Below are positions 10,931-35,433 of a stretch of 64,000 bases of DNA, one piece after another; the stretch's first letter is position 1; the number at the start of each line of letters is the position of its first letter. The notes beneath the pieces are model-generated. The model saw nothing but the letters and a program-made list of their open reading frames with translations, was not told where the DNA came from and did no database searches. The stretch is from Crambe crambe. Lineage: Eukaryota > Porifera > Demospongiae > Poecilosclerida > Crambeidae. The position numbers and the translations under genes are program-made. The DNA is taken from positions 558,001 to 622,000 of the forward strand of contig OZ004584.1 in assembly GCA_963924555.1 (NCBI GenBank), read 5' to 3'.

Positions 10931-13900
10931 TTAGTTAGCTGATGTTGTTGTAGCCATGACAGTGGCATAAGACTCATTTCGATTCATGACCACATGTATG
11001 CCATCTCTATCACCACTACCAGCTTGAGGACTGATTGCATGCACTTCATTAATTACTTCATATTCCACGTCATCCAGTTCTGTGCCAGTGTGTGATGGGG
11101 AGGGTGCATCTTTGGTCCTGCGTCTATAACAGATGATTGATGTGAGAAAAAGTGCTGTGGTGAGTAAAGTTGCCATGAGGAAACTAACTATGCAGGATAT
11201 GACTGTAGTTGTTAGGCAGGAGCACCTTGCTGGTGTTATCTCTGCAAACAAACAAACAAACAAACAAACAAACAAATAAACAGATATCTCTGCAAAAACA
11301 AACAAATAAACAAACAAACAGATATCTCTGCAAACAAACAAACAAACAAACATTAGCTAGCCAAAATTATGGCAATAGCTAATTATGTGGATTATAAGAG
11401 TATAATGGCAGAAAAAGGCTTTAATTTGACATTTGAGGCATCATCATTAAATTTTGCAAGATTACTTTCTGTCATAGTTGGAGTATTCTGGTTTGGCACC
11501 AATATTGCATGAGCTTCAGTCCAGTTACTACCAATGTACCTGTTATAGGCCCTAATCTGTAATTTATAAACACAATATCTTCATAATAATTATATCTCTA
11601 AGTCTTAATAGCTACCACCCGTGTTAAACTTTGCGCGAGCAATCGCGTAATCTAGCGATGTTTGCGTAACTACGCGTATTTACATCAATTCACGTTGTTG
11701 TTTTTTTGTTTTTTTGTTTTTTTTTAGTTAATTTTTTTATTATTATTTTTTTTAATAATGGAATTCGATTATACAGACAAACAAACAAGTCCAAGTCATG
11801 GCACTCCATCTAGAGAGGGGGGGAGAGTTGGGAGGCGATGTAGCCATAAACAGGCGTTGCCACGCCACAGGGCGATGGCTAGTCGACCAAAGAGGTGCTT
11901 GGAAGAGTTGGAGGAATCTGTAGTACCCACTCTGTCTGCGATGGCCTTGCCAATGGAGCGAACAGTTTGAATTGTGTCGTCAGCAAGGCCCCCTAATGTT
12001 TCTGCTACCAGAGGAATGAAGTGCAAGCCTGCCGAGCGGCAAGCTGATAAAGAGGATGCTAGCTTGCGGTTCACTCCCACCTGAAGGGCATGGCCTGGGG
12101 TGAAGGAGGCTTCATTTAGAGTCTGCTGCTGCAGGGGGCTGATTACATGGACATCCAGAGCTGCAGGACGGCCCCCTTTCCAATTGGGTAGAAGGATATC
12201 AGCTGGGCGAGAGAGGGAGCTGGCAAGGAGGCCAGGGGTCTCCTTGGAAGGGGCCAAGGCTGCAGACTGGGCTGCAGAGAAGACCACGTCCCGTATGGCA
12301 TTATGCCGGGAAATGCGGTCACCGTTTCCACTACACCCAACCTGGTGATCACCAAAGATGTCAGCAGTGTCCCGGCATTCTGGGCAAGGAAGTGGATTAC
12401 TTTGGAGAGGAATTCCCAGCCAGTACCGCAGGCAGCATTGGAATTCTCTGTCTTGAAGGTGAAGACCCAGTGATGTTGATGGCACCACATTAAGCCAGTC
12501 CCCTGCATGAGGCAGACTTGAAGAGTATGCCAGAGCTCGTGAGCGGATGGTGGGGGCAGAAGAGAGTAAGTTCTGGAAGGAGGCCTCATCAATGCTGTGG
12601 GAAAGAGAGCGTTGCCGTAGAGGGACATCGATATCATCAATATTTTGCCAGTCAGAACGGGCTGCTGTGGTGGCAAGGGCCTTCACGGCAGGGACGGTGT
12701 GGAGTGTGGAGCTAGGCGGGTGACCAAGGATGCGCTCCACCAGATGCTTGGAGGCTGTGCTAGAGGCCAAAAAAGCAGCTGGAGCATGTAGTGAGGCACT
12801 GCGAAGATTAAGGCCACCATGACTGCTGGGGAGGCTTGCCTTAAGCCATGACCAATCAGACAAAGGACCACCCACAATAGATTCCAGGGTGTCACGGATG
12901 GCTTGGTCGAAATCACACGAGGATTGCTGTATATGGCTGGGAGGACAGGCTCGGAGGACAAAAGTATGGTGGCCGAGAAGGGTCACCCGCGACCGCTTCG
13001 CAAATATTCATTGCCGCCCGCGGTATCCACAATACCGCCCGTGGTTGGCGCGTGCATGCGCATGACATCGACAGATCCGGAGACCCTTTACCCAGTCATT
13101 TATACTACGTGTCAAGGTCGAATGGTGAGTATACAGCTTTACTGGCTGAGCCTATACTGATTTCTTTTATCTTTGTAGGTGTTGATGAGCTACTGACCGA
13201 ATATTTTTACTCTGGTAGGAGTTATCAAAGGATAGTGTATCGGCTTTAGGGTCTATCAAGAAGGTCCAAACCCAGAGCTAGTTTAATTCCATAAGGCAAA
13301 ACCAATTAATTTTCCTGTTTCTTATCAGCTCCCTCATTGATTTTTGCAAAAATTGAAACAAAACTTTTTCTTTGCTGTGCCAGTCTAATCATAAAGAGAC
13401 TCATTGTGAGTAATTTGTGACAGCTGCTTAAATTAGGCAACAAAAAAAAAATGCTCTTTTTAATGGCACACACACTAGCTAGTTTAGCTAGTTAGCAGCT
13501 TGTGTAGACCAAGTTAGCTAGGCTGGCTAGCTATTAAAATAATCTAGCTACATAACTCTGTGCAACTGGAAAGTCCTCGTGTATTTATTTTTGTTTTCGC
13601 ATGCAGAGGGAATTTGTATGGAAGTGTTGTTGCCATCAAGAAAATTGATGTAGCTATGTTCATTTTATTACAGAAGATAGCTATGAAATAGTATTTTGAT
13701 AGAGCAAGTCAGCTGCCTCATTTACTTCCACTATGGCCAGGTTTCCCTACCTATTATTTCGTAATTTTGCAGGTAGAACTGATGAAGCAGCATGGCCTAC
13801 TCACTGCAGTGGACAAGAGAGGAGGGGAATTGGCCCCTTACGTCTTCAATATAATATCATGAAGTAATACAATTATGTTTGAAGAAGCACAGCAAACATG

Positions 13901-16900
13901 CAACCAGTGATAAGGTAGCTATCATCTAGCGAAATAAAAATAGTAATTATAATGATGTCACTATTCTGTTCTCTTTTGTGCTAGATTGTTAGTGTGTGGA
14001 ACAGGACAAACTTTTAGTCATGAATCTATTCTTTCATTCTGAATAATAAATATACTGCAACAGAGATAATTATATATAAGGTGCAAAATTGTTTTAAAAA
14101 TGGATATGGAGGATTTAGGACTTGATGCATTTCTTTCGGCGTATCTCGGTGAAAAATATAGATGCAATTCAGTGCATCAATGACTGGGTAAAGGGTCTCC
14201 GGATCTGCAGCTCATGCACGATTGCGACACGTACGTACGTACACGTGGTACTGGGTAAAGGGTCTCCAGATCTGTCATGCATGCGCGCACGCCAACCGCG
14301 GGCAGTATGTACATGTGGGGGGTACCGCTGGCGGTATTATGGATACCGCGGGCAGCAGTGAATATTTGCGAAGCGGTCGCGGGTGACCCTTCTCGGCCAC
14401 CATAGCATAGTGGCCAGAATAACGCGCGTAATCCCGCGCTATCAGGCGTATCTTCGCGGTCATTTTGCACGCGATTTATCGTAATAATCCGCGTAAGCGC
14501 GCGCAAAGTTCAACACGGGCAGCTAGCTATAGTGGCGATTACTAACCTGAAGATAAAGAACCTGGTCGTCATTGGTAAGACCAAAGTTAGCATCAATCAT
14601 AGTGACGTTGCCCTGTATAATGAAGAAATAGAATTCTAATCATAGTAATCTGATTATGATTGATGCTCACCTGGATGCCTTCCTTGCATCTGGAGTGAGC
14701 TTCTTCATGACCTTGTAGTGGAGTGGGTGTGGTACACATGGTGTAGCTTTGTAAAATCCCGTTCACTTCAGCAGGAGGTTCCCAACTGGCCACAATCCTG
14801 ACCTCACGGGACTGGACTTCATAAGACAGCAGGGTAAAGTTCACTACTTCTGAAGGACGAGGTGACAAGGCACTGAGTGTGCAGTTGTACATAGAGTGTG
14901 GTGGTGGGAATAATGTGATTCTCATGTTCCAATTGATCGTCAGCTGTAGAGATAGGTATAAATTTGATTTATTATTGAAGTAGCTCTTCATAACTACCTC
15001 AAATCTGAAAAAGTCAGTAGGATCTTCTCGTGGGGCATAGACTCTTTGGTATTCATCAATTTGATGTGAGTACTGTGATGTGTTTACCTAATAAGACACA
15101 ATTATCAGGTCATGCTCATAGAAACAAAACAGCTAATTAACTCACAATTGCACTGATAGGTGGAATACGCTCCCCATTTTCAAGCACTCTTTCTCTAGGA
15201 CCAGATCGTGGATCTTCTGTAACTCTGATCACTTTAATGGCAAGAGTGAAGCTGTCCACGTAGTCACTATATGCTACATGTGGTGCTAGTGACCACGTCA
15301 CATTGAAGGCAAAGTAATAATTCCCAGTGGTGTTGTATTTTCCAGATTTGGTGCAATCACCAATAATTATTGATTCTGCAATATTAACAAGAAAGGCGAA
15401 CTGAAAAAGGCAACATGGACTGATTATTTCTGGCATCCATGGGAGGGATCATTTGCAACCGAAATCTTATATTTAGCCTCATACCTAAACCCTTTACCCA
15501 ACATGTATTGGATAGTGTCTGGCTATGTCTGATTAGTAAACTTACGTTGAGTGGCTTCATATTCCAGAGACACTGAAGTATTCCCATCTTTACCAACTGA
15601 AGCAACCTAGTGAGTTAACCAACCTTTATTAATCATGTGTATATCGTATAGGTAGAAATTCCTTTCTTAGTTTTGTGCATGGTTTTGAAAAATTAATACA
15701 CGAAACAAGAATTTATTTGATACCATGAAAATATCATACCATTAGCTAACATCAAAATAAAAAACTATGGGCATAAAACACAATGTCATTAATATCTGTG
15801 TACATGGCCCCAGGGCTTACTGTTATCATGTATCTGCAGCCCATCACTGGGAGTTGCCCACGAGTGGAAGCTGACAATATCACAGAGTAATGCTCACTGT
15901 CTGGATCCTGTAAGATTTATAGAGTCATTGGCTAATTAAGTCATGTACGAGAGGAGGCTAGAGGAATGGTCATAAACTCACACGATCAATAGTCTTCAAC
16001 AGAGGTTCAGAACGACACATTCCCCCATCGCTCAAATTCTCAACCAATATTGTATAATTATGTAGATAGAGAGAACCTATAATGTTTGATAATAATTAAC
16101 CTCGCTACCTCAAAACTTACGTAGCCAACAGGTAGTTTATCTATGGAAGTTATTTAGCTAGCTACATACTCCGAGGTCTTTGCCATGTGACATTGATCAC
16201 TGCATGTTGGAAGAATCTGATTCTTGTGTCTTCTCTGCCTGTAACTTGGACCCATTCTGGCGGAAGGGGAATTTGAGACTGATTTTTTGTATCTGGGAGG
16301 ATGAAAGATGAAAAGCCGGGGAATTTAAGAACTAGATGTATTATGTTGTGGTTTCAGGTATGGATTTAAGGGGATCTATATTATAGTTATTACTTCCAAT
16401 AATTATTATGAAAAACTTTTGGTTATACTCAAAAGACAATTAGCTATATACTGAGAAGTATTCCTTCTTCTAATATTGCTGGGGCTAAAGTACTTTCACA
16501 GTACAAAGCCTTAAGCATTTTCAGTATGGATTCGCTTATTAAAAACACAACCTTCAAGAATACCTGTGAGAGTAAATGGTTATCATTATCTGCTACTGCA
16601 GGAAAGAAGGGAGTGAAGTAGGAATAGTTACCTCATAATTGGTGATGGGTAAGGGGTTACTTGACTGAAGTTCACTCTCTTGTTGCTGAACTTTTTTGAA
16701 CTGCACACAGCCATCCCTACTTCTCTTTTTTATTTAGAATAAATATTTTTTTCCTTTTCTTGTTCATCATCTTTTTTGATGTAATGTTCTATTTTTTTTT
16801 ATTACAGGCAACTGGATGCTATCAAAGTTAAAGTTCATGTATTGTAGCTATGTAGTTTATTGCAGATTTCATCATAATATTGTATGAGCCGACTGATCTG

Positions 16901-19900
16901 GAAGATCTATACAGTTTTACAGTGGTGGATTCAGGATGTGAGAAAGGGGGTTGTGCGCGTTAGCGCGTGCGTGAAAATTTGGTGGCCATGCCCATTTTAG
17001 TTGACCACACCCACTTCTGAGGCTGACTGCTGTGACATCGTAAGACTTAGGCAGCTAAATTTTAATAGATATAACTAGATAGAGGTAATAGAAGATAAAG
17101 TGGATGAAATTAGTCTGCTTACATCTGAGCATGCTCAATAGGCACAGCGCGCTGCGCTGGTGGAATAGCGGCCCAAAGGGGATTTCAATGGAAACCTTCA
17201 AACCCCCCTGGATCCACCACTGGTTTATAATAAGATTGCCGTTGACATAATTTTGTAAGGTAAGGTGGCCTAATTTCGGACAGTTCCTAATCTCGGACAC
17301 CCAAAGCTACTGCAGCAGTGAGAAGGAGGTCCAAGCCAAAACCTGGTGCAGACAAAGTACTGCTCCTACTTAACTCCTGCAGCAACTCTTGAAGAATAGA
17401 TTCCTTTGATAGCTAACTCTAATTTTATTACGCGTAAATTTTAATGCAAAATGATGTCATCAATTTCAAAGGGCAATACAGTCCACCGGAAAGAAGAAAA
17501 GATCAGCAATAAAGTACCATAGACAGAGCGAGGGCTAGACTATTAGAGAGTGACTGAACCTTTCCAATTCATAGGTGATTCAGGTTGCTGTTAGCAAGTG
17601 TCCGGAATTAGGACACTCTGGTAATTTTGGAAGTTCTTAACCACCTTGATATTTAGTATTGCCAAGCAAGGGCGCCAGCATCTATGATTACTAAACTTGT
17701 GTTATGATAAAAGGAAAGGCTGGTCTTTATTTTGAACTTCACAGTAAGTCTGTAGCTGCTTCCAACCCAAAGTAGCGTTGAAAGTTTCCGGAAAGTGTCC
17801 GAGAATAGGCAACATTACCTTATATAATTTTTAAGGCCTTTACTGATACGTATGTACCTGATATACTGTTGCATTAAGGGTTGATTCATAACCAGACTAG
17901 TGCCTAGGGTTTACGCTCTGAGCATCGAGAGACCAACTCCAAGAGAGAAAGCCTTGGAGAAAGCTAATGACAGATTCACTAGTCAGTTGTGAGGTCGAAG
18001 TCCAAGAATCACGTGTTACGGGCGGGGCATAAAAATGTCTCTCATCATCATCATCGTCATCAAACAGCATATTTCAGAAATGGTTCATTCAAATGCTATA
18101 ATTCTTATACCAATCTACTCAGAAATGACTGCACTATAATCCTTTACCTTTAAATCGACATGTTCAAAAATAGCACGTCGTTTTCCAACTTGTTAGCTTT
18201 CAACCTACAACGAGGCATGATGAACGACTAGATGAAAACGGCGATTTTTGAAGTCGCTGTAAAATGATACTGCTTTGTTCTCTACTCTTCATACTCGAGT
18301 CCAAGCATGTTGAAGGTGTTCTGTCTTCAAGTTAGGAGTTGCTGACTGCAGGAGGTAAGTATTCTGGAGTTATGAAAGAAAATATCTAGTACTACTCTAA
18401 TGGAGCATCCATGCCATCCCTACTTAGAGAGTACTATCGTACTCTCTGATAAATAAATGGTATACTGTTTGCAAATGGACTCATTGGACTGTATACCGTA
18501 TAGTGGGAAACTTTCGAGGGAGAATACTTTCGCGAATTTTGCTGGTTTGCTGCAATCAGTGAAAGTTTTTTCCGCGAAATTCAATTAATTTGGTCAATTG
18601 CAAGCACGCTCCATGCACGTGCCATGCTCGATCGGCATATGCAGCTGTTTGTTCTTTGTTGCCATGTCTCTGCTCAAGTACTTCAAGAAAAATCCAACTC
18701 TTCCAAAGCCTGATGGACCACTGTCATCAGTAGTTCCTTCTTCTAGTATAGCAGCCGCTAACAAGGAGGTGAAACAGGTATTAGACTAATGGGAAGAAGA
18801 ACACAAAGTCCAAGATCAAAGCCCAGCGTGGAACGTATGAACAAAGACGATGTGTTGTGACGTGACGTACATAAGGCCTTGATTGATCGATCGATCGTGA
18901 AAGACTCTCCGCGAATTTTTCTATTCATGCTATTCGCGAAAGTATTCTCCCTTGAAAGTTTCCCACTATACGGTACTTCATCTCTCTGATGTGCATACAA
19001 ATAGAGTAGTCATGTTCATACACTCAAGAATGCTCTGGTGAATGGATGATTAGTGAATAGATTCCGTATCAGTCAGCCCGCCACCGGCAAAATATCCGGA
19101 AATTGATTTCCACAATGACGTCAGTTCACAAACATGCAAAAATTATTATCGGAGGTATAACTTCAGACTAGAAAACGGTACAAGTTCCAGGTTTTGGACG
19201 AGCAGAAGTGGTTTTGCAAGGTCTTTTTCTAACCGAGCGGAGACTGGCTCAGCTTCTAATTTCTCCTCGCTATAGCAACTTGAAGTGAATTGCGGTATAC
19301 AGAACTCAGTATACTAAAGCTTCCTAACAATTTGTGTTGCAGCATGCATTTCCAGGGGCTGACTGTATACTTAACATTGAATTCTACCATTCTACCTTTA
19401 TATACTTGTGTGGACAACTATTCTTTGAATGTCAATGTGTGGATATGTAAATATGCAACATGCTAAAATACCCTTGTAGCTTGCTTAGTAAACAAGTACA
19501 GAGGACAGAAACGATAAACAAAAATACATCAGTCATAAAATTTATTAATCACCTCCAAATACTTCAAGTGTCACCACATCAGAGAAATTAGATGGTCCTG
19601 CACTGCTCACCACTGCAAACGATATATTAACACTTCGACACGCATGACTTGATAAATCCAAATCTTCCCTTGGATCGTGCTGTATTGTTCCAGATATCAA
19701 TTTTAGTATAAAATAAACATGCAAGTGCAAGATAATAACAGTTATCACTAATCAACACAGTCCCAAATTTAATGTAAATAGACTAGCTATTTAGCCTCGT
19801 GGAGAGGAAGGCCTGGGAACGAGGCTACTAGCTATTGGTATTGGGACAGATCTTAAGGCAGTATACTGCCCTCAAACATATAGCATCCCAGGGATTAATC

Positions 19901-21057
19901 ATAGGGTCCAACTCCATGCATTAACATAATGTTAGTTACCTGCCATATGTATGTGATGTTACCAGACATGCTGTCATGAATCTTGAAGAGGAATCCAACG
20001 AGAAGAGGGTTAGTTGTTCCTGCAGGTGGCATGGCTTCAGTCAGATTGATGGAGTAGGCACCAGCTCTGTAAGAGGACAGTGTACGGCTGTCCAGTGGAA
20101 TGAGTCTTGGAGGAGCAAGAGGTCGAGTTGGAGAAATAGGCATTCTCATACCAGTGATATTTTCACCTGCCAAACATCCAAAGTGACACTCTATTCTCTA
20201 AATGCATATTGAAGATTCACAGCTTGAACAAGCAAAATTAACACACTTACCAAATGGCATTCGATTGTACAACCACTTCTGACTATCCAGAGGTCTATGG
20301 TGTCCTCATTTCTGCACACGTTCTCACCATTACACTCAGTTCTGCAATCCTCCATCTAAGACTCGGAAAGAAGAGTGAGAGAGAGAAAGAAAAGAGAGAA
20401 AGAAAGAAAGAGGGAAGAAAGAAAGACAGTTCCAACTCTAAAGCTTAATAGCTATTAAAGATTTATAGCTTTCTTAGTTAGCTATGAGATAATGTGTTCT
20501 ACTCACACAGTCAGTGATACACTGAGACACCATATTATGATCTCTTGTCATTGATGGATTATTGGTGATTCCTGCACTTGTAAGCCAAGCTCGACAGCCT
20601 CGAGTACACTCATGGATCTATATTGTCATAAAGCCAGCTAGTAATGATCAAGAGAATATGATTGTATAGCATGCTATCTTGCTAGCTCTAGCTATATTAC
20701 CTTCTGTTGGTCTTCACAGTTTGAGTCATTATCCACAATAGGAAAAGGCCAAGTCTCGTATGTGAGGTGTATTGTCCTTAGATCCTGGAGAGAAAAAATT
20801 TTTTTTACAGCTGTGCTACAGAGAAAGAAATGTTTTGCTAGTCCTATGCTTACATTATGAGGTCCACCATCTCTCAGACAGCTCAAGTAACATCTCCCCT
20901 CAGTCAGCAAGAGGGCTTTATTTTCTGGTGTAAGGTTCACCTCGTGGAGAGGTCGGGAGTAGAGAGGTAAAACGCATGTTTGTTGATCATAGGCAGCCAG
21001 ATACGAGTGAAGCAGTGCGATGAATATTGTGGAGATAAAAAGACACAGTGAAGACAT
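10931..21057 (-). CDS. Gene C, kinase-less RTK-like receptor
   Basis: Complete 16-exon receptor, 771 aa. Exons (minus strand): 21057-20854, 20784-20701, 20617-20507, 20355-20251, 20197-19940, 19679-19553, 16292-16170, 16076-15982, 15907-15821, 15606-15546, 15375-15146, 15087-14998, 14943-14671, 14612-14547, 11556-11466, 11241-10931. The first 15 exons match gene D with few changes: signal peptide [16 protein letters not shown], cysteine-rich head, FN3-like modules. The last exon is unrelated to D. It encodes a membrane helix (about 680-706), a YRRR stop-transfer, and a tail of about 64 residues with VEYEVI (Tyr 729, matching the ITIM pattern) and ESYATV (Tyr 760). No kinase exon follows; the next minus-strand feature is the exon-1 relic. 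Several introns are swollen by transposons. Likely an inhibitory or decoy partner of D, which is an inference. Confidence 0.85.
11242..11352. repeat. (CAAA)n with three acceptor-like repeats
   Basis: CAAA/CAAACAAA runs interrupted three times by agatatctctgcaaa-like units. On the gene C strand these give three TTTGCAG|AGATA acceptor copies, with exon starts at 11241, 11289 and 11327. The first is used in the model. The second would add 16 codons in frame. Confidence 0.8.
11796..12963 (-). pseudogene. Retroelement ORF C-terminal fragment (relic 2)
   Basis: One long open minus-strand frame of about 390 residues, truncated at its 5' end by the inverted-repeat element beginning at 12965. It has a zinc-knuckle-like CPECRDTADIFGDHQVGC, then RHNAIRD, then RPADI followed about 12 residues later by ALDV. 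This order (knuckle, basic motif, PD-(D/E)xK-like Asp pair) resembles the C-terminal endonuclease region of R2-type non-LTR elements; that comparison is from memory and not verified. It ends with KHLFGRLAIALWRGNACLW, shared with relic 3. A T-rich plus-strand block (about 11698-11757, A-rich on the element strand) follows the stop as a likely 3' tail. No reverse transcriptase domain is visible. Confidence 0.7.
12965..14404. mobile_element. Long-TIR foldback element
   Basis: The left arm (12965 to about 13105) begins tatggtggccgagaaggg. The right arm is its inverted complement, ending ccttctcggccaccata at 14404, with about 75 bp near-perfect and more beyond that (gggtaaagggtctccggatc). TA flanks both ends. 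The interior (about 13110-14160) has no convincing ORF. A single similar end (tatggtggcccagaagggct) stands alone at about 9207. Confidence 0.7.
16920..17222. mobile_element. MITE, CAGTGGTGGAT-ended
   Basis: Terminal inverted repeats cagtggtggattcagg / cctggatccaccactg enclose about 300 bp with no ORF of note. Same family as 40004-40171. Confidence 0.6.
17256..17822. mobile_element. MITE with TAAGGTAA ends
   Basis: Imperfect 26-bp inverted ends: taaggtaaggtggcctaatt at 17256 and its diverged complement ending acattacctta at 17822. Both ends continue into a ttcggac/gtccgag word. The interior is non-coding. Confidence 0.5.
18496..18973. mobile_element. TA-flanked Tc1/mariner-like MITE
   Basis: A 478-bp element with about 45-bp inverted ends starting ccgtatagtgggaaact and ending agtttcccactatacgg, flanked by a TA target duplication (18494-18495 and 18974-18975). 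It sits in gene C intron 6. The interior carries a short plus-strand frame (18658-18789; MSLLKYFKKNP...) that may be the remnant of a transposase-type ORF; the family was not confirmed. The gene D copy of this site has TA-CG-TA instead (30680-30685). Confidence 0.8.
18976..19552. other. Gene C intron 6, segment shared with gene D
   Basis: Non-coding sequence closely matching, in inverse orientation, gene D intron 6 (about 30105-30680). It contains the CCGGCAAAATATCCGG palindrome-like word and no ORF. Gene B's equivalent intron is 65 bp, so this material was gained before C and D separated. Confidence 0.6.
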
Positions 21058-22655: not shown

Positions 22656-24513
22656 ATGACACGGCCAGTGTTCAGATGCAGATGGAACTACGGTGGCCGG
22701 TAAGGGCCATTCAAACTTGATGTTTTCCATTTCCAAACTTGATGTTTGTCATTTCTAAACTCTTAGCTAGTCAGTTTAATTTGTCAAAGTACATATCACA
22801 GGGCATCAGAGGGAAACTGAAGTGGTGAGGCCATAATTAGCTAGCTCTACACCTGCGGTGCACAAAGTGCATCATTTAGGGGATCTTGAGGCATGCCCCC
22901 TTTGAAATAATAGGGATCAAGAGATGTTCAAACATGTGTATGCATAGGAGAGGCATGAGTGCTGCATCTTGAACTGTCTTCTGTCTAGGAGAGGCATGCA
23001 TGACTGTTGCCAGGCATGTAAAAATACATTAAAGAATTCTGCCGGTGTTATTGACCAGGATGGGGTAAGTTACGTCTTATAATAATAATTATGGTGACTT
23101 TCTTCGTATTAGCTAGTAGCTATCTTATGGCATCATTAAAGTTTGACAGAAGAATCAAAATTAGAAGTTTTAAACTTTGACAGTTTCATAGATTATAAAA
23201 GGCCAAGATTAGAAGTTTTAAAGTTTTGAAAAAAATTATTAGAAGTCGAAGTGGAAAATGTTGGGAAAACTTGAGTAATGAGTATTCAACCTTAGCTAGA
23301 GATGCATGGAAGCAATTAGTACGGTGGCTGGTAAGGGCCATTCAAACTTGATATTTTCCATTTCCAAATTTGATATATTCCATTTTCAAACTTGATGTTT
23401 ATCATTTCCAAACATTTCCAAACTTGACGTTTGTCATTTCTGAACTTGATATTTGTCAATATTTCCCATTTCCAAACTTAAATGTTTTTAATTTTCAAAG
23501 TACTACAGTGGCATCAGAATGGTAAGGATTATAAGATTCCGATGGAGTGCTTGAAAAAATCTTGTTCCATGTCTAGTTAGAGAGCATCATAGCTATAGCT
23601 AGCTACTGAAACATATACCTGAAAGACATACTGCTATGGTACTTTGATGGACATACGTACTGAGGAGAAAAATCTATGGATGAGATGATAGAATCTAGCT
23701 ACCAGTTGACTTACTATCTCCATGCCCCAAATTTTCATGTCGCCTTAACACTGTGGCTATCAACAAAATGAATCGTATCAATAATTCTCTTAATAATAAC
23801 AGCGAGCTAATAGCTCATTGCTTCCATGCATCTCTAGCTAAGGTTGAATACTCATTACTCAAGTTTTCCCAACATCTTCCACTTTGACTTCTAATAATTT
23901 TTTTCAAAACTTTAAAATTTCTAATCTTGGCCTTTTATAATCTATGAAACTGTCAAAGTTTATAAAACTTCTAATTTTGATCCTTTATAATTTATGAAAC
24001 TGTCAAAGTTTCTAATCTCGATTCTTCTGTCAAACTTTAATGATGCCATAAAATAGCTACTAGCTAATATGAAAAAAGTCACCATAATTATTATTATAAG
24101 ACATAACTTACCCTATCCTTATGGTCAGTACACTGGCAGAAGTCTTTTTTTATTTAATTAAAAAAATTTTTTTTGTATTTTTACATGCCTGGCAACAGTC
24201 ATCCTAGACCATGCCTCTCCTATGCATACACATGTTTGAACATCTCTTGATCCCTATTATTTCAAAGGGGGCATGCTTCAAGACCCCCTAAATGATGCAC
24301 TTTGTGCACCGCAGGTGTAGAGCTAGCTAATTATGGCCTCACCACCAGTTTCCCTCTGATGCCCTGTGGTATATACTTTGACAAATCAAACTGACTAGCT
24401 AAGAGTTTAGAAATGACAAACATCAAGTTTGGAAATGGAAAACATCAAGTTTGAATGGCCCTTACCGGCCATGCACCGTAGTTCCATCTGCATCTGAACA
24501 CTGGCCATGTCAT
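22656..24513. mobile_element. 1.86-kb foldback (palindromic) element
   Basis: The left arm, 22656 to about 23316, is the inverted complement of the right arm, about 23817-24513; a loop of about 500 bp lies between. The ends include the gatggaactacggt word and its complement, then a tggccggtaagggcc word and its complement. The arms carry repeated aacttgatgtttNtcatttcc units. The right arm has a small A/T-rich interruption (about 24130-24180). No ORF. Its end motif is related to the ggtggccgagaaggg ends of the element at 12965-14404. Confidence 0.75.
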
Positions 24514-25717: not shown

Positions 25718-25760
25718 TGTAACCATAGATAGTATATTACCGCCCCGGGATTGGAAACGG
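25718..25760. repeat. Left arm of distant inverted repeat (with 28441)
   Basis: About 42 bp (taaccatagatagtatatta, then ccgccccgggattggaaacgg) is the inverse of 28441-28483, just upstream of gene D. The two arms bracket 2.7 kb containing a SINE-like unit, retro relic 3 and tandem repeats. Confidence 0.7.
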
Positions 25761-26123
25761 AACCAATTCCACGGGCAATCCGTGTTATGAAGTCAACGCG
25801 CGCGCGCTTAAATCTAATAATTATTACAGAACATACAGTGATAATGTGCAATACATACAGTGCATGCTACTAGTGATGTGATGGACTCTTCTTCCTCTCC
25901 TTATTCATCAGTCGAGAAGGCTACTACACAATAATTATACTACACAATATAATAATTACTTTCTGGCTCAGATAGATTTGCATGCACAAGTAAGTGATCA
26001 CAAAAATTGATGCAGAGTTGCTAATCTATATAATAATGTGCTTGTCAGTGCGTACATACGCACTACGTCACATTATGTCAAGGTATGCATCACAGTTAAT
26101 AATTGAGAAAGAAAAAGAAAAAA

Positions 26124-26198
26124 ACCTAATTGATTTGGGGCTCGAACCTGAGTCCTCGGACCTCGCCGGCCAACCCACTACTGCATGACTACAACGGC
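26124..26198 (-). other. tRNA-like SINE head
   Basis: Read on the minus strand, GCCGTTGTAGTCATGCAG begins a tRNA-sized unit with a box-A-like TAGTCATGCAGTAGTGGG and a good box B (GGTTCGAGCCC, 26148-26138). A T-rich stretch downstream could stop RNA polymerase III. The arms do not fold into a convincing canonical tRNA, so a tRNA-derived SINE is more likely than a real tRNA gene. Confidence 0.4.
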
Positions 26199-26219
26199 AA
26201 TGCTATCAATATTTGATTT

Positions 26220-26605
26220 TTTTAAAGGTATTGCAAATCAGATATGCTATTGTTGTTTTTTTGGTATAGTTTTTTGTTTTTGACTGAATTCTGATAAGAT
26301 AACACCAAAAGAGAAACAAATAAGGGACAAACAAAAAACAAAAACAGATCAGATATGCTGGGTTTTTTTTTAATTTTTTGTTTTTGATTGAATTCTGATG
26401 ATCATGATTGTGACCAAAAGAGGGACAAACAAAAAAACAAGTGAACAGAAACCAAAAGAAAAACAAAATAATTTTGCAGATCAGATATGCTGTTTTTTTT
26501 TTGTTGTTTTTTTTGATTGAATTCTGATGATATGAAACCAAAAGACAAACAAACAAGGGACAAGCAAAAAACAAGTGAACAAAAATCAAAAGAAAGATAA
26601 AATAA
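26220..26605. repeat. Three-copy tandem repeat, ~125 bp unit
   Basis: Three diverged units, each with gcagatcagatatgctg-like start, a T-rich block, ttgattgaattctgatga, then an A-rich accaaaagaNNgacaaacaa block. Long open frames across it are artefacts of the T/A-rich composition. Confidence 0.75.
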
Positions 26606-26629
26606 AACAACAAAAACACAACAGCAGTA

Positions 26630-26858
26630 AAATAAAGACCATCCAGTTCAGGGGGCAGGGTCGCAGCCATAAACTTGCATTCCCATGCCGAAGAGCAATG
26701 GCGACATGCCCGAAAAGGTGCTTGGTGGACGAGGTGGCATCATCCTCAACGAGGCCACCTAGAGTTTCAGCCACAAGCGGGATAAATTCAACTCCCACAG
26801 AGTAGCAAGATGAGAGATGGGAAGTCAGCTTGTGACGAATGTGCGCATACTTAGACAT
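26630..26858 (-). pseudogene. Retroelement ORF 3' end (relic 3)
   Basis: The minus-strand frame has FIPLVAETLGGL and KHLFGHVAIALRHGNASLWL, matching the last ~75 residues of relic 2. The rest of the element is missing. The tandem A/T-rich block at 26220-26605 begins directly after it on the element strand and may have grown from its 3' tail. Confidence 0.7.
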
Positions 26859-26884
26859 GACTGCGCATGCTCAGATTTAAATAC

Positions 26885-27115
26885 AATGGCGCGAAATTCA
26901 GGGAGAGAGAGGCAGAGTTGAAGTTCAGAAACTAGAAGATCAAGGGAGAGAGAGAGGCAAAGAAGTCAGAGAGCACATTTCACTGAAGATGAAAGAGCAA
27001 GGGAGAGAGAGGGAGAGAAGTCGAAGAACACACTTGACAGAAGATGAAAGAGCAAGAGAAAGAGAGAGGTACAGAGTGAAGGAGAGAAGGGAGAGAGAGA
27101 GAGAGAGAGTATTAG
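26885..27115. repeat. GA-rich minisatellite
   Basis: About three units of a ~57-bp GA-rich repeat (agggagagagaggcaaagaa, then agtc, ...cactgaagatgaaagagca), ending in a simple (GA)n run. Confidence 0.75.
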
Positions 27116-28440
27116 GAGAAAACTAACAGGGAAGAACAAAGACATATAGGCTAGGTGCTAATGAAACAAGCAGCACCTTGGGCCCATTGTCAAGTTTGAG
27201 GTTTGCAAGTGAAGCTCTCAACTGCTGTCACAATGGACTAGCTACCTCTTACTGATTATCCTTCTGCACTTAAAGAACTGTTTACTGGTTAAAATGAAAT
27301 TTGGGACAACTTGGAATTGATCACTAAAAGGATTTACTCCAGTTGAGAAATGGATTGAGTAACTAGCTAGCTATGTTGCACGTGAGAAAATCAATCCTTA
27401 TGCAAACACTTGCAACCCTCTATTGCAGGTTGTGGTACTTAATAAAGTCAGACTCACTACAGATTAATGCATGTGAAAAGGGAGAATAAACTCAAGCGTA
27501 CAAGTTAAAATCAAAATATTTGCACAATTAAATCTCGCTTAAAGTTTGCACATTACAATTAGTGGAATCTGACATGATAATGCCCTTGCAATAGTCTCAA
27601 ATAGACCTTTACTTGACATGCATAACTTGTACCCTTCATATAATTATGTCACTGGTAGCCACTCACTGCCAGTGAGTGGACACACACACATTCTGTGTGT
27701 AGAGTTTTTGCGGACGCAGGCATGCGCAGAGTTTCTGCGGGTACTCGCTAGTAATATAATATTATACCATCAAAATTATCAATGAACTTCAATGCCAAGA
27801 TGCAGTCATCAGAGTTACCAACACAATTTTGCTGGAATCAATCCGGCACAGTTACTAGAGAGACACAGGAGCTGCAATGCTGGAACAATTTTTAGGGTCA
27901 TGTTGCAATCTATAAATGATATTGACACTATTGATCATTTAATACTGGCATGAACTGTGGAGTGACCAGGATATCTGGAATGGAGTGCAGCAGTGGAAGT
28001 TACATGACTATTACTTTCTTGTACATAGCCGATGTTTCCTTCCTCCCATGAGTGCTCAAGTAATTGGTTTATATTTTCACCATTAATGCAGTAACATGTA
28101 TCTAATGCCACTCATTCTATAAAAGAAGGATGACTCTACTCACAAAACTAGATAATAAGCACAAACCTAAGTTATGAAGACTACCATTCCCCCGACAAAT
28201 TTTCTTCTAGTTTTCTATATCGCTAAAGTGTGGAATTTAGCCATTATACTAGTAGGAATAATTAAAATTGTGGATGCAAATTATAAATACTAACCGCCGC
28301 TTGCAGTTTCCCTGTGAAAGAGCAGCCACACGCCTCCTAGCGGACCGCTGCAGCCCGTTGCTACCCACGTAACTAAGTAAGTTTCTTGGTCGCAAACCAT
28401 AACACGGAGTGCCCGCGGAATTTTCAATTAGCCTATGCTA
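27116..28440. other. Intergenic, no gene recognised
   Basis: About 1.3 kb between the GA-rich minisatellite and the gene D upstream arm. Only short stop-rich frames are present. A small inverted word (cacacacacattctgtgtgt, about 27680-27702) is the one feature noticed. Confidence 0.45.
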
Positions 28441-28564
28441 CCGTTTCCAATCCCGGGGCGGTAATATACTATCTATGGTGTAACATAATAAATATCGCAA
28501 TTTTCCATTTTGACCAATTCGCTCGCTCGCCAATTACACTTCAGAGAATGAATGAGAGATAATT
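28441..28564 (+). promoter_or_regulatory. Gene D 5' flank
   Basis: Starts with CCGTTTCCAATCCCG (28441-28455) in gene sense, 110 bp before the ATG, followed by a ggcggtaatatactatctat stretch that pairs with 25718-25760. The last ~35 bp match the gene C leader. The same 15-mer lies 42 bp before the gene B ATG, also in sense. Confidence 0.5.
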
Positions 28565-31500
28565 ATGTCTTCACTGTGTCTTTTTATCTCCACAATATTC
28601 ATCGCACTGCTTCACTCGTATCTGGCTGCCCATGATCAACAAACATGCGTTTTACCTCTCTACTCCCGGCCTCTCCACGAGGTGAACCTTACACCAGAAA
28701 ATAAAGCCCTCTTGCTGACTGAGGGGAGATGTTACTTGAGCTGTCTGAGAGATGGTGGACCTCATAATGTAAGCATAGGCCAATTACTGGCTAGCAAAAT
28801 ATTTCTTTCTCTGTAGCACAGCTGTAAAAAAAAATTTTTTTTCTCCAGGATCTAAGGATGATACACCTCATATACGAGACTTGGCCTTTTCCTATCGTAG
28901 ATTATGACTCAAACTGTGAAGACCAACAAAAGGTAATATAGCTAGAGAGCTAGCAAGATAGCATGCTGTAGCTACACTCATATTCTCTTGATCATTACTA
29001 GCTGGCTCAGTATAGGCTAGCAACTCATTGTTTATTATTATAATGTAATATAGATCCAGGAGTGTACTCGAGGCTGTCGAGTTTGGCTTACAAGTGCAGG
29101 AATCACCAATAACCCATCAATGACAAGAGATCATAATATGGTGTTTCAGTGTATCACTGACTGTGTGAGTAGAACACATTATCTCATAGCTAACTAAGAA
29201 AGCTATAAATCATTTAATAGCTATTATAAGCTTTAGAGTTGGAACTGTCTTTCTTTCTTCCCTCTTTCTTTCTTTCTCTCTTTTCTTTCTCTCTCTTACT
29301 CTTCTTTCCGAGTCTCAGATGGAGGATTGCAAAACTGAGTGTAATGGTGAGAACATGTGCAGAAATGAGGACACCATAGACTTCTGGATAGTCAGAAGTG
29401 GTTGTACAATCGAATGCAATTTGGTAAGTGTGTTAATTTTGCTTGTTCAAGCTGTGAATCTTCAATATGCATTTAGAGAATAAAGTGTCACTTTGGATGC
29501 TTGGCAGGTGAAAATATCACTGGTATGAGAATGCCTATTTCTCCAACTCGACCTCTTGCTCCTCCAAGACTCATTCCACTGGACAACCGTACACTGTCCT
29601 CTTACAGAACTGGTGCCTACTCCATCAATCTGACTGAAGCCATGCCACCTGTAGGAACAACTAACCCTCCACTCGTTGGATTCCTCTTCAAGATTCATGA
29701 CAGCATGTCTGGTAACATCACATACATATGGCAGGTAACTTAACACATTATTCTAATAATTATCATTATGTCAATGCATGGAGTTGGACCCTATGATTAA
29801 TCTCTGGGATGGTATATTGTTTGAGGGCAGTATACTGCCTTAAGATCTGTCCCAATACCAATAGCTGGTCTATTTGATAGACACATTAAATTTGGGACTG
29901 TGTTGATTAGTGATAACTGTTATTATCTTGCGCTTGCATGTATACTAAAATTGATACCTGGAACAATACAGCACGATCCAAGGGAAGATTTGGATTTATC
30001 AAGTCATGCGTGTCGAAGTGTTAATATATCGTTTGCAGTGGTAAGCAGTGCAGGACCATCTAATTTCTCTGATGTGGTGACACTTGAAGTATTTGGAGGT
30101 GATTAATATAACATATTAAATTTTATGACTGATGTATTTTTGTTTGTCATTTCTGTCCTCTGTACTTGTTTACTATGCAAGCTACAAGGGTATTTTAGCA
30201 TGTTGCATATTTATATCCACACATTGACATTTAAAGAATAGTCGTCCACACAAGTACAGGTAGAATGGTAGAATTCAATGTTAAGTATACAGTCAGCCCC
30301 TGGAAATGCATGCTGCAACACAAATTGTTAGGAAGCTTTAGTATACTGAGTTCTGTATACCGCAATTCACTTCAAGTTGCTATAGCGAGGAGAAATTAGA
30401 AGCTGAGCCAGTCTCCGCTCGGTTAGAAAAAGACCTTGCAAAACCACTTCTGCTCATCCAAAACCTGGAACTTGTACCGTTTTCTAGTCTGAAGTTATAC
30501 CTCCGATAATAATTTTTGCATGTTTGTGAACTGATGTCATTGTGGAAATCAATTTCCGGATATTTTGCTGGTGGCGGGCTGACTGATACGGAATCTATTC
30601 ACTGATCATCCATTCACCAGAGCATTCTTGAGTGTATGAACATGACTACTCTATTTGTATGCATATGAGAGAGATGAAGTACGTATACAGTCCAATGAGT
30701 CCATTTGCAAACAGTATACCATTTATTTATTAAGCAAATAGCTGATAATGATAACCGTTTACTCTCACCGGTATTCTTGAAGGTTGTGTTTTTAACAAGC
30801 GAATCCATACTGAAAATGCTTAAGGCTTTGTACTGTGAAAGTACTTTAGCCGCAGCAATATTAGAAGAAGGAATACCTCTCAGTATATAGCTAATTGTCT
30901 TTTGAGTATAACCAAAAGTTTTTCATAATAATTATTGGAAGTAATAACTATAATATAGATGCCCTTAAATCCATACCTGAAACCACAACATAATACATCT
31001 AGTTCTTAAATTCCCCCGGCTTTTCATCTTTCATCCTCCCAGATACAAAAAATCAGTCTCAAATTCCCCTTCCGCCAGAACGGGTCCAAGTTACAGGCAG
31101 AGAAGACACAAGAATCAGATTCTTCCAACATGCAGTGATCAATGTCACATGGCAAAGACCTCGGAGTATGTAGCCAGCTAAATAACTTCCATAGATAAAC
31201 TACCTGTTGGCTACGTAAGTTTTGAGGTAGCGAGGTTAATTATTATCAAACATTATAGGTACTCGTTATCTGCGTAATTATACAATATTGGTTGAGAATT
31301 TGAGCGATGGGGGAATGTGTCGTTCTGAACCTCTGTTGAAGACTATTGATCGTGTGAGTTTATGACCATTCCTCTAGCCTCCTCTCGTACATGACTTAAT
31401 TAGCCAATGACTCTATAAATCTTACAGGATCCAGACAGTGAGCATTACTCTGTGATATTGTCAGCTTCCACTCGTGGGCAACTCCCAGTGATGGGCTGCA

Positions 31501-34500
31501 GATACATGATAACAGTAAGCCCTGGGGCCATGTACACAGATATTAATGACATTGTGTTTCATGCCCATAGTTTTTTATTTTGATGTTAGCTAATGGTATG
31601 ATATTTTCATGGTATCAAATAAATTCTTGTTTCGTGTATTAATTTTTCAAAACCATGCACAAAACTAAGAAAGGAATTTCTACCTATACGATATACACAT
31701 GATTAATAAAGGTCGGTTAACTCACTACTACATAAAATTGATATTACATTAGGTTGCTTCAGTTGGTGAAGATGGGAATACTTCAGTGTCTCTGGAATAT
31801 GAAGCCACTCAACGTAAGTTTACTAATAAGACATAGCCTCGTTCCCAGACACTATCCAATACATGTTGGGTAAAGGGTTTGGGTATGAGGTTAAATATAA
31901 GATTTCGGTTGCAAATGATCCCTCCCATGGATGCCAGAGATAATCAGTCCATGTTGCCTTTTTCAGTTCGCCTTTCTTGTTAATATTGCAGAATCAATAA
32001 TTATTGGTGATTACATTGATCTGTTCTGCACCAAATCTGGGAAATACAACAGCAACTCTGGGAATTATTACTTTGCTTTCAATGTGACGTGGTTGCTAGC
32101 ACCACATGTAGCATATAGTGACTACATGGACAACTTCACTCTTGCCATTAAAGTGATCAGAGTTACAGAAGATCCACGATCTGGTCCTAGAGAAAGAGTG
32201 CTTGAAAATGGGGAGCGTATTCCACCTATCAGTGCAATTGTGAGTTAATTAGCTGTTTCGTTTCTATGAGCATGACCTGATAATTGTGTCTTATTAGGTA
32301 AACACATCACAGTACTCACAGCAAATTGATGATTACCAAAGAGTCTATGCCCCACGAGAAGATCCTACTGACTTTTTCAGATTTGAGGTAGTTATGAAGA
32401 GCTACTTCAATAATAAATCAAATTTATACCTATCTCTACAGCTGACGATCAATTGGAACATGAGAAACACATTATTCCCACCACCACACTCTATGTACAA
32501 CTGCACACTCAGTGCCTTGTCACCTCGTCCTTCAGAAGTAGTGAACTTTACCCTGCTGTCCTATGAAGTCCAGTCCCGTGAGGTCAGGATTGTGGCCAGT
32601 TGGGAACCTCCTGCTGAAGTGAACGGGATTTTACAAAGCTACACCATGTGTACCACACCCACTCCACTACAAGGTCATGAAGAAGCTCACTCCAGATGCA
32701 AGGAAGGCATCCAGGTGAGCATCGCTCATTATCAGATTACTGTGATTAGAATTCTATTTCTTCATTATACAGAGCAACGTCACTATGATTGATGCTAACT
32801 TTGGTCTTACCAATGATGACCAGGTTCTTTATCTTCAGGTTAGTAATTGCCACTAGCTGGTATTAAGACTTAGAGATATATTATGAAGATATTGTGTTTA
32901 TAAATTACAGATTAGGGCCTATAACAGGTATATTGGTAGTAACTGGACTGAAGCTCATGCAATATCGGTGATTCACACACCAAACCAGAATACTCCAACT
33001 ATGGCAGGCAGTAAGTAATTGCTAGTGTCAGTCATGTGTGAGTTGATAGCTAGTGAGAAAATTAATCTTACGTAGATGGTGATTGATATATTTGGTTGCA
33101 GGTAGTTTAGGAACAGGTCCCATATTGGGCATCGTGTTTGGGGCAATCATTGCAGTGATTGTTGCATTACTGTGTGTGGTGTGCACTTGCGTCTGTTTCA
33201 AAATGCTCAGAAAAAGAAAGAAGATGATAAGAATGAGTCAAGTGAGTTAAAGTAATGATTTAATAAGTATGACTTCACAGTGTGTCCTACATTCCTTGCA
33301 GACTACAGCACACTATGATCCAATGTTTAACACAGTTGGCTTTGGACCTAGGATGCCCACTCTGGTGAATCATAATGCTGATCAGTCACTTGTTTCCCAG
33401 GACGACTGGGAACTCTCTCCTTCTGATATTATCGTGGACGACTCACTTGGGGAAGGAGCCTTTGGACTTGTCTACAAAGGTTTTCTAAAAGGACCCATCA
33501 CATGCAGCAAAGTCAAACCTGCATACAGAAAGGCAGTTCATGTCGACGTTGCCATAAAACTCCTCAAAGGTATTTTTCATAACTTTAATCCATGCTCATT
33601 TTAACATTAAGTTTGAACTCTAGACAGTGCCAAGGGAAGTGAGAGACGAGACTTTTTATCAGAGATAGAGATGATGAAGAAGGTGTCTGAAGGTCACAGT
33701 CCACATGTGGTGGGAATGTTGGGATGTGTGACAGTCCAGGAACCACTGTGTCTGGTCACCGAGTTTGTCCAATATGGAGACCTTTTATCTTACCTGCGGA
33801 GCAACAGGAAGATTGTATGTAATACAAGATAAATGGGGTGGGGGCAAGCTGAGTGAATCCCAATAAGAGAGTACATGCGTTGTGTTGCACTGAATTACAT
33901 TGCATACATAGGCGATGCTTCATAGACAAAGGCATATGAATGTTGAGGGAGCTGACTACCACAGTGTGCGTGAAAAGTGGGTGTCTGGCAGCCCCTTACT
34001 GATTATTTATTTTCATCCATTAACATATTATTAGCTATTACAAAACAGTAAAAAAATTAGCTATGGTTTAAAGCTTCTACATTTGTAAAAGTGGTAACCC
34101 TAACTATTTGTTTCAGTACATAACTGGCACTGTTAGAGAAGAAGAAGACCCATACTTGCAGCTGGGACAGATCGCACCTATCGATCTTATCTCCTTTGCC
34201 TACCAGATAGCAGCAGGAATGGCATATCTCTCCAGCATTGGTATAGTCCACCGAGATCTTGCCTGCCGTAATATTCTTGTTGATGAAGGAAGAGATTTGA
34301 AGATCACTGACTTTGGCATGTCACGTGAAACAGATGAGATATACATCCAGAAGAGCAAAGGACGTGTTCCTTACAAATGGATGGCCATCGAATCCATCAT
34401 GGCACGAGAATTCACCTCTGCCTCTGACGTGTGGTCCTACGGAATTGTCCTTTGGGAAATTGGAACTCTAGGTAGCTAGCTATTATGTGCTACTGAGTCC

Positions 34501-35433
34501 AATTAGATTTATTTTTTTTCCCAATTTCAGGAGGTGTCCCATATCCTGGAGTTGCTAATGAACAACTCCTTCCCCTACTAAAGAGGGGGCACAGAATGGA
34601 AAAACCCGACAACTGCTCATCAGAAATGTGAAAAAGTTTTAGTTACTGATTGTCAATCTTTGCTTATAATTGACCTTTATTTTAGGTACGACATTATGCT
34701 CTCTTGCTGGCATGAAGAGGCAACCAAGCGACTGTCCTTCTCTGAATTGCAAGCCAAGTTTGATAACATGCTGTCAACTCAAGGCAACAACCCTTACATC
34801 GACTTCTCCATCAACCCAGAGAAATTGTGCTACACTCTTGAAGCAGATGAATCTGAAGCTCCATTAACCAGTCACCTTCGCTTGCCCTCTGCAAGAACCG
34901 AATTCCCTAGTGATTTGGGGATACCTTCTTCCAGGAATACAAGTTGTTCCTCAGTTAAAAGTTTGCTCCAAAGAATGAATGATTCAGCTCGAAAGAGTTG
35001 CTCTCCTTTGCCTACGAGTGAAAAGCTTCATGCCTCTAATGCCACAAGTCTCAAGGTTGAAGGAAGGGTAACAGAAAGGCCATCCAGCATGACCCTACTT
35101 CACAATTACGAGTCACTTGATAACCGATATGTGAAAGATCCTTCTCTCTTCATGAAGACACTTGCTTCTGCAAGCGATGGCTATGTGATGTTGGTTGGTA
35201 ATGATGTAACAAATACCTGTGGTCATGTGACAAATCCCAGTGGTCATGTGACAGTTGGTGGTGGTACCGGTGGTGGTGGTGGTGGTGGTGGTGGTGATCA
35301 TGTGATGGGTGGGGGTGGGAGGAAAGGAGGAAGTGATGGAGTGCTGAACTTGACTTCAGGTGGTGCTATCGATATTTCAAATCCCCTTCCAGCTCTACAA
35401 CAGCTGCCAAAAATTGAAATCATAGAAAGTTAA
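28565..35433 (+). CDS. Gene D, receptor tyrosine kinase
   Basis: Complete 21-exon RTK, 1276 aa. Exons: 28565-28768, 28849-28932, 29054-29164, 29319-29423, 29477-29734, 29972-30098, 31043-31165, 31259-31353, 31428-31514, 31753-31813, 31992-32239, 32298-32387, 32442-32714, 32773-32838, 32911-33010, 33102-33241, 33302-33569, 33624-33814, 34117-34471, 34531-34627, 34686-35433. Signal peptide, cysteine-rich head to about 175, FN3-like modules to about 677, membrane helix in exon 16. The kinase is intact: GEGAFG about 775, VAIK Lys about 810, alphaC Glu 827, Thr gatekeeper, HRDLACRN about 922, DFG 942. The tail has YIDF, RYVKDPS, a Gly-rich run (35255-35330) and terminal EIIES. The ectodomain is almost the same as gene C, which is head-to-head 7.5 kb away. 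An AATAAA at 35627 may be its poly(A) signal. Confidence 0.9.

What the first reader, a model, noticed from the sequence alone, without database searches (positions are those of the whole stretch)
10931..35433. Head-to-head paired receptors: same ectodomain, kinase tail (D) versus ITIM-like tail (C)
Genes C and D share nearly identical exons 1-15 in the same phases (exon 1 differs by about one residue in 68). D continues into an intact tyrosine kinase, while C ends in a different membrane/tail exon with a VEYEVI tyrosine motif. All 16 exons of C keep frame to a stop at residue 772, so C is not simply a truncated pseudogene. The arrangement copies the logic of vertebrate paired activating/inhibitory immune receptors, but here the activating member is itself an RTK. 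A role in ligand competition or self/non-self recognition is speculation.
Basis: partly seen in the sequence, partly recalled or inferred. Interest (0 to 1): 0.82.

Follow-up and report, generated by a model that had tools for sequence, protein, structure and literature searches.

The report
Kinase-less twin of a receptor kinase
Two neighbouring genes share almost the same outer (sensing) part, but one ends in a tyrosine kinase and the other in a short tyrosine-motif tail borrowed from a different receptor family; the same kind of swap shows up again elsewhere in this genome, so it looks like a recurring way of making paired receptors.

Summary
D (28565-35433, +) is an intact 21-exon receptor tyrosine kinase of 1276 aa. 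C (21057-10931, -) is an intact 16-exon gene of 771 aa. Exons 1-15 agree in phase and are 95% identical in protein (635 of 668 aligned residues). C's homology to D stops 4 nt into intron 15. Beyond that C carries a transplanted 3' module whose relatives are a tail-deleted copy 59 kb away and the tail of an Ig receptor on another chromosome. Frame retention exceeds chance: 0 of 3 exon indels shift frame, against 11 of 15 in introns (p=3e-5). C's ectodomain shows no sign of being less constrained than D's.

The new result is recurrence. The tail belongs to a cassette family (YExPhi ... NE[A/S]Y). Ectodomains 68-89% identical in protein occur with either a kinase or such a tail in three further gene sets, two of them related. 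A clear SHP-2 relative is encoded.

'ITIM' is only partly supported: C fits the consensus, but 11 of 16 family tails do not. Inhibition is inferred; expression is untested. C is most likely a kinase-less docking partner that modulates D.

The parts
20854..21057 (-). C exon 1 (signal-peptide-like start, 68 codons)
   Evidence: 1 residue differs from D exon 1
20701..20784 (-). C exon 2
20507..20617 (-). C exon 3
20251..20355 (-). C exon 4
19940..20197 (-). C exon 5
19553..19679 (-). C exon 6
16170..16292 (-). C exon 7
15982..16076 (-). C exon 8
15821..15907 (-). C exon 9
15546..15606 (-). C exon 10
15146..15375 (-). C exon 11 (in-frame -15 and -3 nt relative to D)
14998..15087 (-). C exon 12
14671..14943 (-). 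C exon 13 (weak fn3 similarity, below Pfam cut-off)
14547..14612 (-). C exon 14
11466..11556 (-). C exon 15, last exon shared with D; phase-1 donor follows
10931..11241 (-). C exon 16: juxtamembrane, transmembrane segment and Tyr-motif tail of about 66 residues, stop
   Evidence: homologues
11132..11194 (-). C transmembrane segment (residues 685-705, mean Kyte-Doolittle 2.19)
11051..11068 (-). VEYEVI: fits the ITIM consensus; Y729
10958..10978 (-). NESYATV: second conserved motif, NxxY type; Y760
   Evidence: N, E, Y, T invariant in 9 tails
10839..11409 (-). transplanted 3' module: intron end, tail exon and downstream sequence, in pieces homologous to C6:627948-628226
11409..11462 (-). interval holding the breakpoint between RTK-derived and tail-derived DNA
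28565..33010 (+). D exons 1-15: 28565-28768, 28849-28932, 29054-29164, 29319-29423, 29477-29734, 29972-30098, 31043-31165, 31259-31353, 31428-31514, 31753-31813, 31992-32239, 32298-32387, 32442-32714, 32773-32838, 32911-33010
33102..33241 (+). D exon 16: transmembrane segment
33302..35433 (+). D exons 17-21 (33302-33569, 33624-33814, 34117-34471, 34531-34627, 34686-35433): juxtamembrane, tyrosine kinase (Pfam PK_Tyr_Ser-Thr 1.3e-86), C-tail
11611..14529 (-). insertion in C intron 14, absent from D, with a 403-codon ORF (11799-13007, no Pfam match) and 81-nt inverted repeats (12965-13045 / 14324-14404)

Best explanation
C is a chimeric, intact, kinase-less partner receptor of the receptor tyrosine kinase D. 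SHOWN: an inverted duplication gave C and D the same ectodomain exons 1-15; in C the kinase half is replaced by a phase-compatible membrane/tail exon of a tail family used by other receptors in this genome; the reading frame has been kept; and the same alternative (kinase or Tyr-motif tail on a similar ectodomain) recurs elsewhere. INFERRED: C meets the same ligand as D, or joins D in the membrane. Having no kinase, C lowers productive D-D pairing. D or another kinase phosphorylates C's tail in trans, and the two motifs dock SH2/PTB-domain proteins such as the encoded SHP-2 relative, so that C modulates D, most likely damping it. The sign of the effect is the least certain step.
For: C and D: 16 and 21 exons, open, same phases; 635/668 residues identical. 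Indels: exons 3, all multiples of 3; introns 15, 11 frameshifting; p=3.3e-5. Polarised with paralogue B: C 15 nonsynonymous/10 synonymous, D 11/5, so no sign that C is less constrained; C against a neutral site ratio p=0.036, D p=0.28. Tail: 50% identical to the tail of a C16 Ig receptor with the same phase-1 GCAG|AGA acceptor; 12 of 13 motif residues conserved against 12 of 43 outside, p=5e-5; NExYxT invariant in 9 tails; I/V/L/M at +3 in 37 of 77 Tyr versus 11.9 in shuffles, though the 16 tails are related and not independent. Recurrence: C16 tail receptor L040 versus RTK L043, 93% DNA identity over 1.3 kb ending after the Ig2 exon, 372/418 aa; C16/C21 set with 7 kinase and 27 tail places among 83 ectodomain matches carried over, RTK ectodomains 68-79% identical to the tail-gene query (one kinase checked in L050); C12 tail genes versus six C16 RTKs, ectodomains 74-81%. 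SHP-2-like gene: SH2, SH2, PTP in order on C18, PTPN11 best, E=1.4e-84.
Against: No expression evidence. Exon divergence (2.5%) is not lower than intron divergence (2.2%) and dN/dS is 0.57, so amino-acid constraint is modest in both genes; the no-stop result alone is not significant (P 0.14-0.40). The C exon-15 donor (GTAATC) looks weak by eye. Tail dN/dS against L040 is 0.77. Only 5 of 16 tails have a canonical ITIM. Promoters are not shared, so co-expression is not implied. In four other D-like paralogues no kinase-domain match was found within about 2.6-2.7 kb and two have a stop in the TM exon, so kinase loss by decay is common here. In the other sets 49 of 83 and 18 of 33 ectodomain matches led to neither ending, and at least 3 of the 27 tails and one of the 7 kinases of the third set carry stops.
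Confidence: 0.5

Rival explanations
1. The C tail is a general docking or endocytic tail (Src/Csk-type SH2 at YEVI, PTB or AP-2 at NESY), so C is an adaptor-type co-receptor that may activate or internalise rather than inhibit.
For: Family-wide conserved features are YExPhi and NE[A/S]Y, not the ITIM -2 residue; 11 of 16 tails lack a canonical ITIM. FGFRL1, a kinase-less RTK relative, is reported to bind SHP-1 and raise ERK phosphorylation (passages of PMC12026108). The motif-to-binder assignments are recalled.
Against: In C and its closest tail relative the -2 residue is V, giving the ITIM consensus in both.
Confidence: 0.35
2. C is a young chimera without function: an open frame kept by recency, on the way to decay like other cluster members.
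For: dS 0.039; 0 stops is expected by chance in 14-40% of neutral simulations; four other D-like copies lack a detectable kinase nearby and two carry a TM-exon stop; a 2.9-kb insertion sits in C intron 14.
Against: No frameshift in 2005 exon nt while the compared introns show 11 (p=3.3e-5); C 15N/10S is not more relaxed than D 11N/5S; a second, older pair (dS 0.106) of the same design is open in the 418 aligned codons.
Confidence: 0.2
3. C's main product is another isoform: a soluble ectodomain through retention of intron 15 (stop 24 codons past exon 15), or read-through splicing from 11466 to the phase-1 TM exon of the downstream same-strand kinase gene B (starting at 3086).
For: Donor GTAATC looks weak; in-frame stop soon after the donor; B lies downstream on the same strand with a phase-compatible TM exon.
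Against: Parts of the intron end, the TM start and the downstream sequence are conserved together in the C6:628 kb copy, and the exon and its acceptor in L040, which fits a working terminal exon.
Confidence: 0.12
4. Assembly artefact: C is an alternative haplotype of D placed head to head.
For: C and D differ by only about 2-4%; sponge heterozygosity can be high (recalled).
Against: Different 5' and 3' flanks, a private insertion, no N in the window, one 9.08-Mb contig; the same design recurs elsewhere in the genome.
Confidence: 0.03

Closest known systems
Vertebrate paired activating/inhibitory immune receptors (KIR, LILR, SIRP and others; recalled)
   Same: Linked genes with near-identical ectodomains and different cytoplasmic halves; C fits the ITIM consensus
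   Different: Activating member is itself a kinase, not a short receptor using an ITAM adaptor; no ectodomain relation found; inhibition not shown
FGFRL1, kinase-less relative of the FGF receptors (passages of PMC12026108)
   Same: RTK-like ectodomain without kinase; short tail with tyrosine motifs; reported SHP-1 binding and decoy action
   Different: No Ig domain found in C; C's tail is a transplanted cassette shared with other receptor families; C is a very recent copy of its own RTK
Botryllus fester co-receptors and Hydractinia allorecognition genes with ITIM/hemITAM motifs (passages of PMC12065747)
   Same: Invertebrate clustered receptor families with tyrosine-motif tails; alternative motifs on related ectodomains
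   Different: No RTK partner with the same ectodomain is described in the passages read
Geodia cydonium Ig-domain RTK (mentioned in a passage of PMC12018476) and the sponge adhesion molecules SAML/SAMS (recalled only; one search found no paper with my phrase)
   Same: Sponge RTK plus, by recall, kinase-less relatives with similar extracellular Ig domains

Membership tests
Receptor tyrosine kinase (gene D) | signal peptide, ectodomain, one TM, complete tyrosine kinase | tested here: met
   PK_Tyr_Ser-Thr 1.3e-86, positions 3-257/258; TM; signal peptide judged by eye
Receptor tyrosine kinase (gene C) | kinase domain | tested here: not met
   no kinase family in the 771-aa product
Paired activating/inhibitory receptors | linked, highly similar ectodomains with different cytoplasmic halves | tested here: met
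Paired activating/inhibitory receptors | activating member lacks own enzyme and uses an ITAM adaptor (recalled definition) | tested here: not met
   D carries its own kinase
Paired activating/inhibitory receptors | opposite signalling of the two members | not testable with these tools
   needs cell assays
ITIM-bearing receptor | S/I/V/L(T)-x-Y-x-x-I/V/L in the cytoplasmic tail (recalled consensus) | tested here: met
   VEYEVI in C, VMYEVI in L040
ITIM-bearing receptor | motif conserved as an ITIM in the tail's own family | tested here: not met
   5 of 16 tails
ITIM-bearing receptor | phosphorylation and SHP/SHIP recruitment | not testable with these tools
   SHP-2-like gene present, binding unknown
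FGFRL1-type kinase-less RTK paralogue | RTK-like ectodomain, no kinase, short Tyr-motif tail | tested here: met
   (architecture only)
FGFRL1-type kinase-less RTK paralogue | FGFR homology with Ig domains | tested here: not met
   only weak fn3 found, no Ig at E up to 1
SHP-2 (PTPN11) relative | two N-terminal SH2 domains then PTP; best match PTPN11 | tested here: met
   (only the SH2 part was compared with solved structures)

The most novel reading that the evidence does not exclude
This animal, probably a sponge, has a paired-receptor system built on receptor tyrosine kinases. In four ectodomain sets (two of them related) the genome keeps similar to near-identical outer parts on both a kinase and a modular tyrosine-motif docking tail. 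The kinase partner phosphorylates the tail partner in trans, recruiting SHP-2-type phosphatases, so the kinase supplies the switch for its own brake. The logic of vertebrate paired immune receptors would then have arisen independently, with an RTK as the activating member.
Probability: 0.3. Interest if true: 0.88.

Novelty: new variant of a known kind. Interest (0 to 1): 0.72.

Why it matters
If expressed, it shows a repeatable exon-level route by which an animal makes contrasting receptor pairs: copy an RTK ectodomain, splice on a stock tyrosine-motif tail. It gives concrete, sequence-defined pairs with which to test whether early animals used RTK/tail pairs for recognition, and whether paired-receptor logic evolved more than once.

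Tried and rejected
Rejected: 'C is a truncated pseudogene' (intact frames). 'Tail is random read-through' (homologous tail exons with the same phase and acceptor). 'Tail derived from D's or B's own TM exon': neither was among the listed matches of the tail searches nor of the C-D comparison. 'No-stop test proves selection': not significant alone. ITIM as a family property: not met. Pfam gave no convincing domain for the ectodomains of the third set (L015, L021, L050; one match in L015 far below its cut-off), for two of the fourth set (L012, L013), for the first domain of RTK L041, or for the tail; I therefore do not name that domain. Species: not identified. Related sponges, expression and polymorphism could not be tested. 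Literature searches; among the rows listed none was, by title and start of abstract, about RTK/ITIM-tail pairs in sponges. Papers were seen as search listings, and six of them as found passages; none was read whole.

Rows dropped before counts. I transcribed 83 of 151 ectodomain matches (C16 and C21, mostly complete; left out were most partial ones, those under about 61% identity and other chromosomes), 36 of 42 tail matches and 26 C16 kinase matches (4.97-6.05 Mb), all of them lower bounds; 49 of 83 had neither within 3 kb, some being the first of two tandem domains; one of the 7 kinase places rests on a 71-residue partial match; 33 of 150 matches; 12 kinase (6 at 74% identity or more), 3 tail, 18 neither; 16 tails taken from 20 loci (L009-L028); left out L011 (tail deleted), L026 and L027 (stops) and L028 (not this tail); 22 of 42 matches were not fetched as loci. 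Introns 6 and 14 left out. B exon 8 was not found, so one search uses 14 of 15 exons. Exon-13 copies: ten full or nearly full matches counted, two short or weak ones left out.
Full report
WHAT IS THERE. The window is G000:C6:558001-622000 of a 143-Mb, 119-contig genome and has no N. Gene D runs 28565-35433 on + in 21 exons; gene C runs 21057-10931 on - in 16 exons. Introns are GT-AG and both proteins are open (1276 and 771 aa). D has a complete tyrosine kinase (Pfam 1.3e-86; in the 60 of 134 solved chains shown, one EGFR entry comes first, the rest are RET and FGFR1-3). C has none.

THE DUPLICATION. C and D are arms of an inverted repeat, 93-96% identical in the larger blocks, introns included. 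Homology starts 33-36 bp upstream of the ATGs and ends at 11462/33014, four bases into intron 15 of C. B and D are homologous through this point and on into the kinase, so C is the member that lost the kinase half.

WHERE THE TAIL CAME FROM. C's exon 16 is homologous to three kinds of sequence. (i) C6:627948-628226, 59 kb away and on the same strand, just downstream of an ORF with a PQSTATT-repeat stalk: pieces of the intron end, the TM start and the 3' flank match C at 78-86%, while the tail-coding stretch is missing. Whether stalk and TM form one gene was not tested. (ii) C16:5032878-5033159, 50% protein identity, at the end of a receptor with two Ig-like domains (the second below Pfam's cut-offs), with the same phase-1 GCAG|AGA acceptor. 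(iii) More distant tails on C9, C12, C16 and C21. The breakpoint lies in 11409-11462. In C against (ii), 12 of 13 residues in the two tyrosine motifs are conserved versus 12 of 43 outside them (p=5e-5). In nine tails N, E, Y and T of NExYxT are invariant.

IS C CONSTRAINED? Exons: 50 substitutions and 3 indels in 2005 nt, all indels multiples of three. Introns (6 and 14 left out): 28 substitutions and 15 indels in 1285 nt, 11 not multiples of three; p=3.3e-5 for frameshifts. These counts take both lineages together. dN/dS is 0.57. With B as outgroup (14 of 15 exons), C has 15 nonsynonymous and 10 synonymous changes, D 11 and 5; against a neutral ratio p=0.036 for C and 0.28 for D. Against constraint: substitution rates in exons and introns are about equal, and the absence of stops alone would occur in 14-40% of neutral simulations. 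So the frame is kept, while amino-acid constraint is modest in both genes.

RECURRENCE. The ectodomain of the C16 tail receptor (L040) is 89% identical to C16:5429099-5430007, which precedes an open kinase in L043. DNA homology is 93% over 1.3 kb and stops after the second Ig exon; 372 of 418 residues match, both open, indels in threes, dS 0.106. A third copy (L044) has the first part only in the 4.5 kb seen. A different, unnamed ectodomain occurs on tail genes of C16/C21 and on RTKs of C16: among 83 matches that I carried over from 151, 7 lead to a kinase and 27 to a tail within 3 kb, 49 to neither; at least 3 of these tails and one of these kinases contain stops; L050 shows one full kinase. 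Three C12 tail genes share an ectodomain which, in the one used as query, is 74-81% identical to those upstream of six C16 RTKs; this set is about a third identical to the previous one, so the two are related subfamilies. Thus four ectodomain sets, two of them related, carry both endings.

INSIDE THE C/D FAMILY. Ten full or nearly full copies of exon 13 were found, plus two short or weak ones left out. Five have a kinase downstream (A, B, D, E and the 529-kb copy; E by its ORFs only). C has the tail. For the other four no kinase-domain match was found within about 2.6-2.7 kb, and two of these have a stop in the TM exon. Birth-and-death with kinase loss is therefore common, and C stands out by its intact frame and new ending.

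HOW IT PROBABLY WORKS. Shown: shared ectodomain, missing kinase, conserved two-tyrosine tail, and an SHP-2 relative in the genome (SH2, SH2, PTP on C18; its SH2 part matches PTPN11 best at 1.4e-84). Inferred: C shares D's ligand or dimer interface, is phosphorylated in trans, docks SH2/PTB proteins and modulates D. Damping is my first guess, since a kinase-less partner lowers kinase pairing and VEYEVI fits the ITIM consensus. But only 5 of 16 tails have a canonical ITIM, YEVI also resembles a Src-type SH2 site and NESY an NxxY site (recalled), and FGFRL1 with SHP-1 is reported to raise ERK. The sign is open.

KNOWN RELATIVES. Design: vertebrate paired receptors (recalled), FGFRL1 (passages), and tunicate and hydrozoan receptors with ITIM/hemITAM tails (passages). 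Sponge precedent: the Geodia RTK with Ig domains (passage); kinase-less Geodia adhesion molecules are recalled only. It works like these but is not shown to be a member: the activating partner is a kinase, and Pfam named neither C's ectodomain (weak fn3 only) nor the tail. I rate it a new variant of a known kind.

LIMITS. No transcripts, no second species, no polymorphism; genome counts are lower bounds from capped lists; the species is not identified.

Noticed in passing
L018/L042, C16:5594655-5597721: A tail exon lies about 1.9 kb upstream of a stop-bearing kinase copy on the same strand: ectodomain, tail exon, decayed kinase in one row, possibly a stage in a kinase-to-tail switch by an alternative last exon.
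   Followed up: partly
C6:539501-542500 and C6:544701-547700 (L045, L046): Two D-like copies share a stop inside or just after the TM segment and have no detectable kinase in the stretch seen: possible tail-less membrane forms or pseudogenes.
   Followed up: partly
window 11241-11350: Three near-copies of a T-rich tract followed by CAGAGATA, i.e. three acceptor-like sites in tandem just before the tail exon.
   Followed up: no
window 12965-14404: 81-nt inverted repeats (94%) bound a 1.4-kb stretch inside C intron 14; an adjoining 403-codon ORF (11799-13007, -) has no Pfam match.
   Followed up: partly
window 22656-24513: Large imperfect palindrome (arm pieces 81-99% complementary) in the region between the C and D start codons.
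   Followed up: no
window 8120-8381 and 10513-10772: Two 94% identical copies of a first-exon-like stretch upstream of gene B on the - strand.
   Followed up: no
C16:5787198-5870444: Many ectodomain matches sit in open frames of about 490-560 aa with neither kinase nor tail found within 3 kb downstream: a third type of ending or a secreted form.
   Followed up: no
L014 and L016 (C21): Tails with 3-4 repeats of a YVIESLSAGRE-like unit and, in L016, about five repeats of a QENEAYD-like unit: tandem multiplication of tyrosine motifs inside the tail exon.
   Followed up: no
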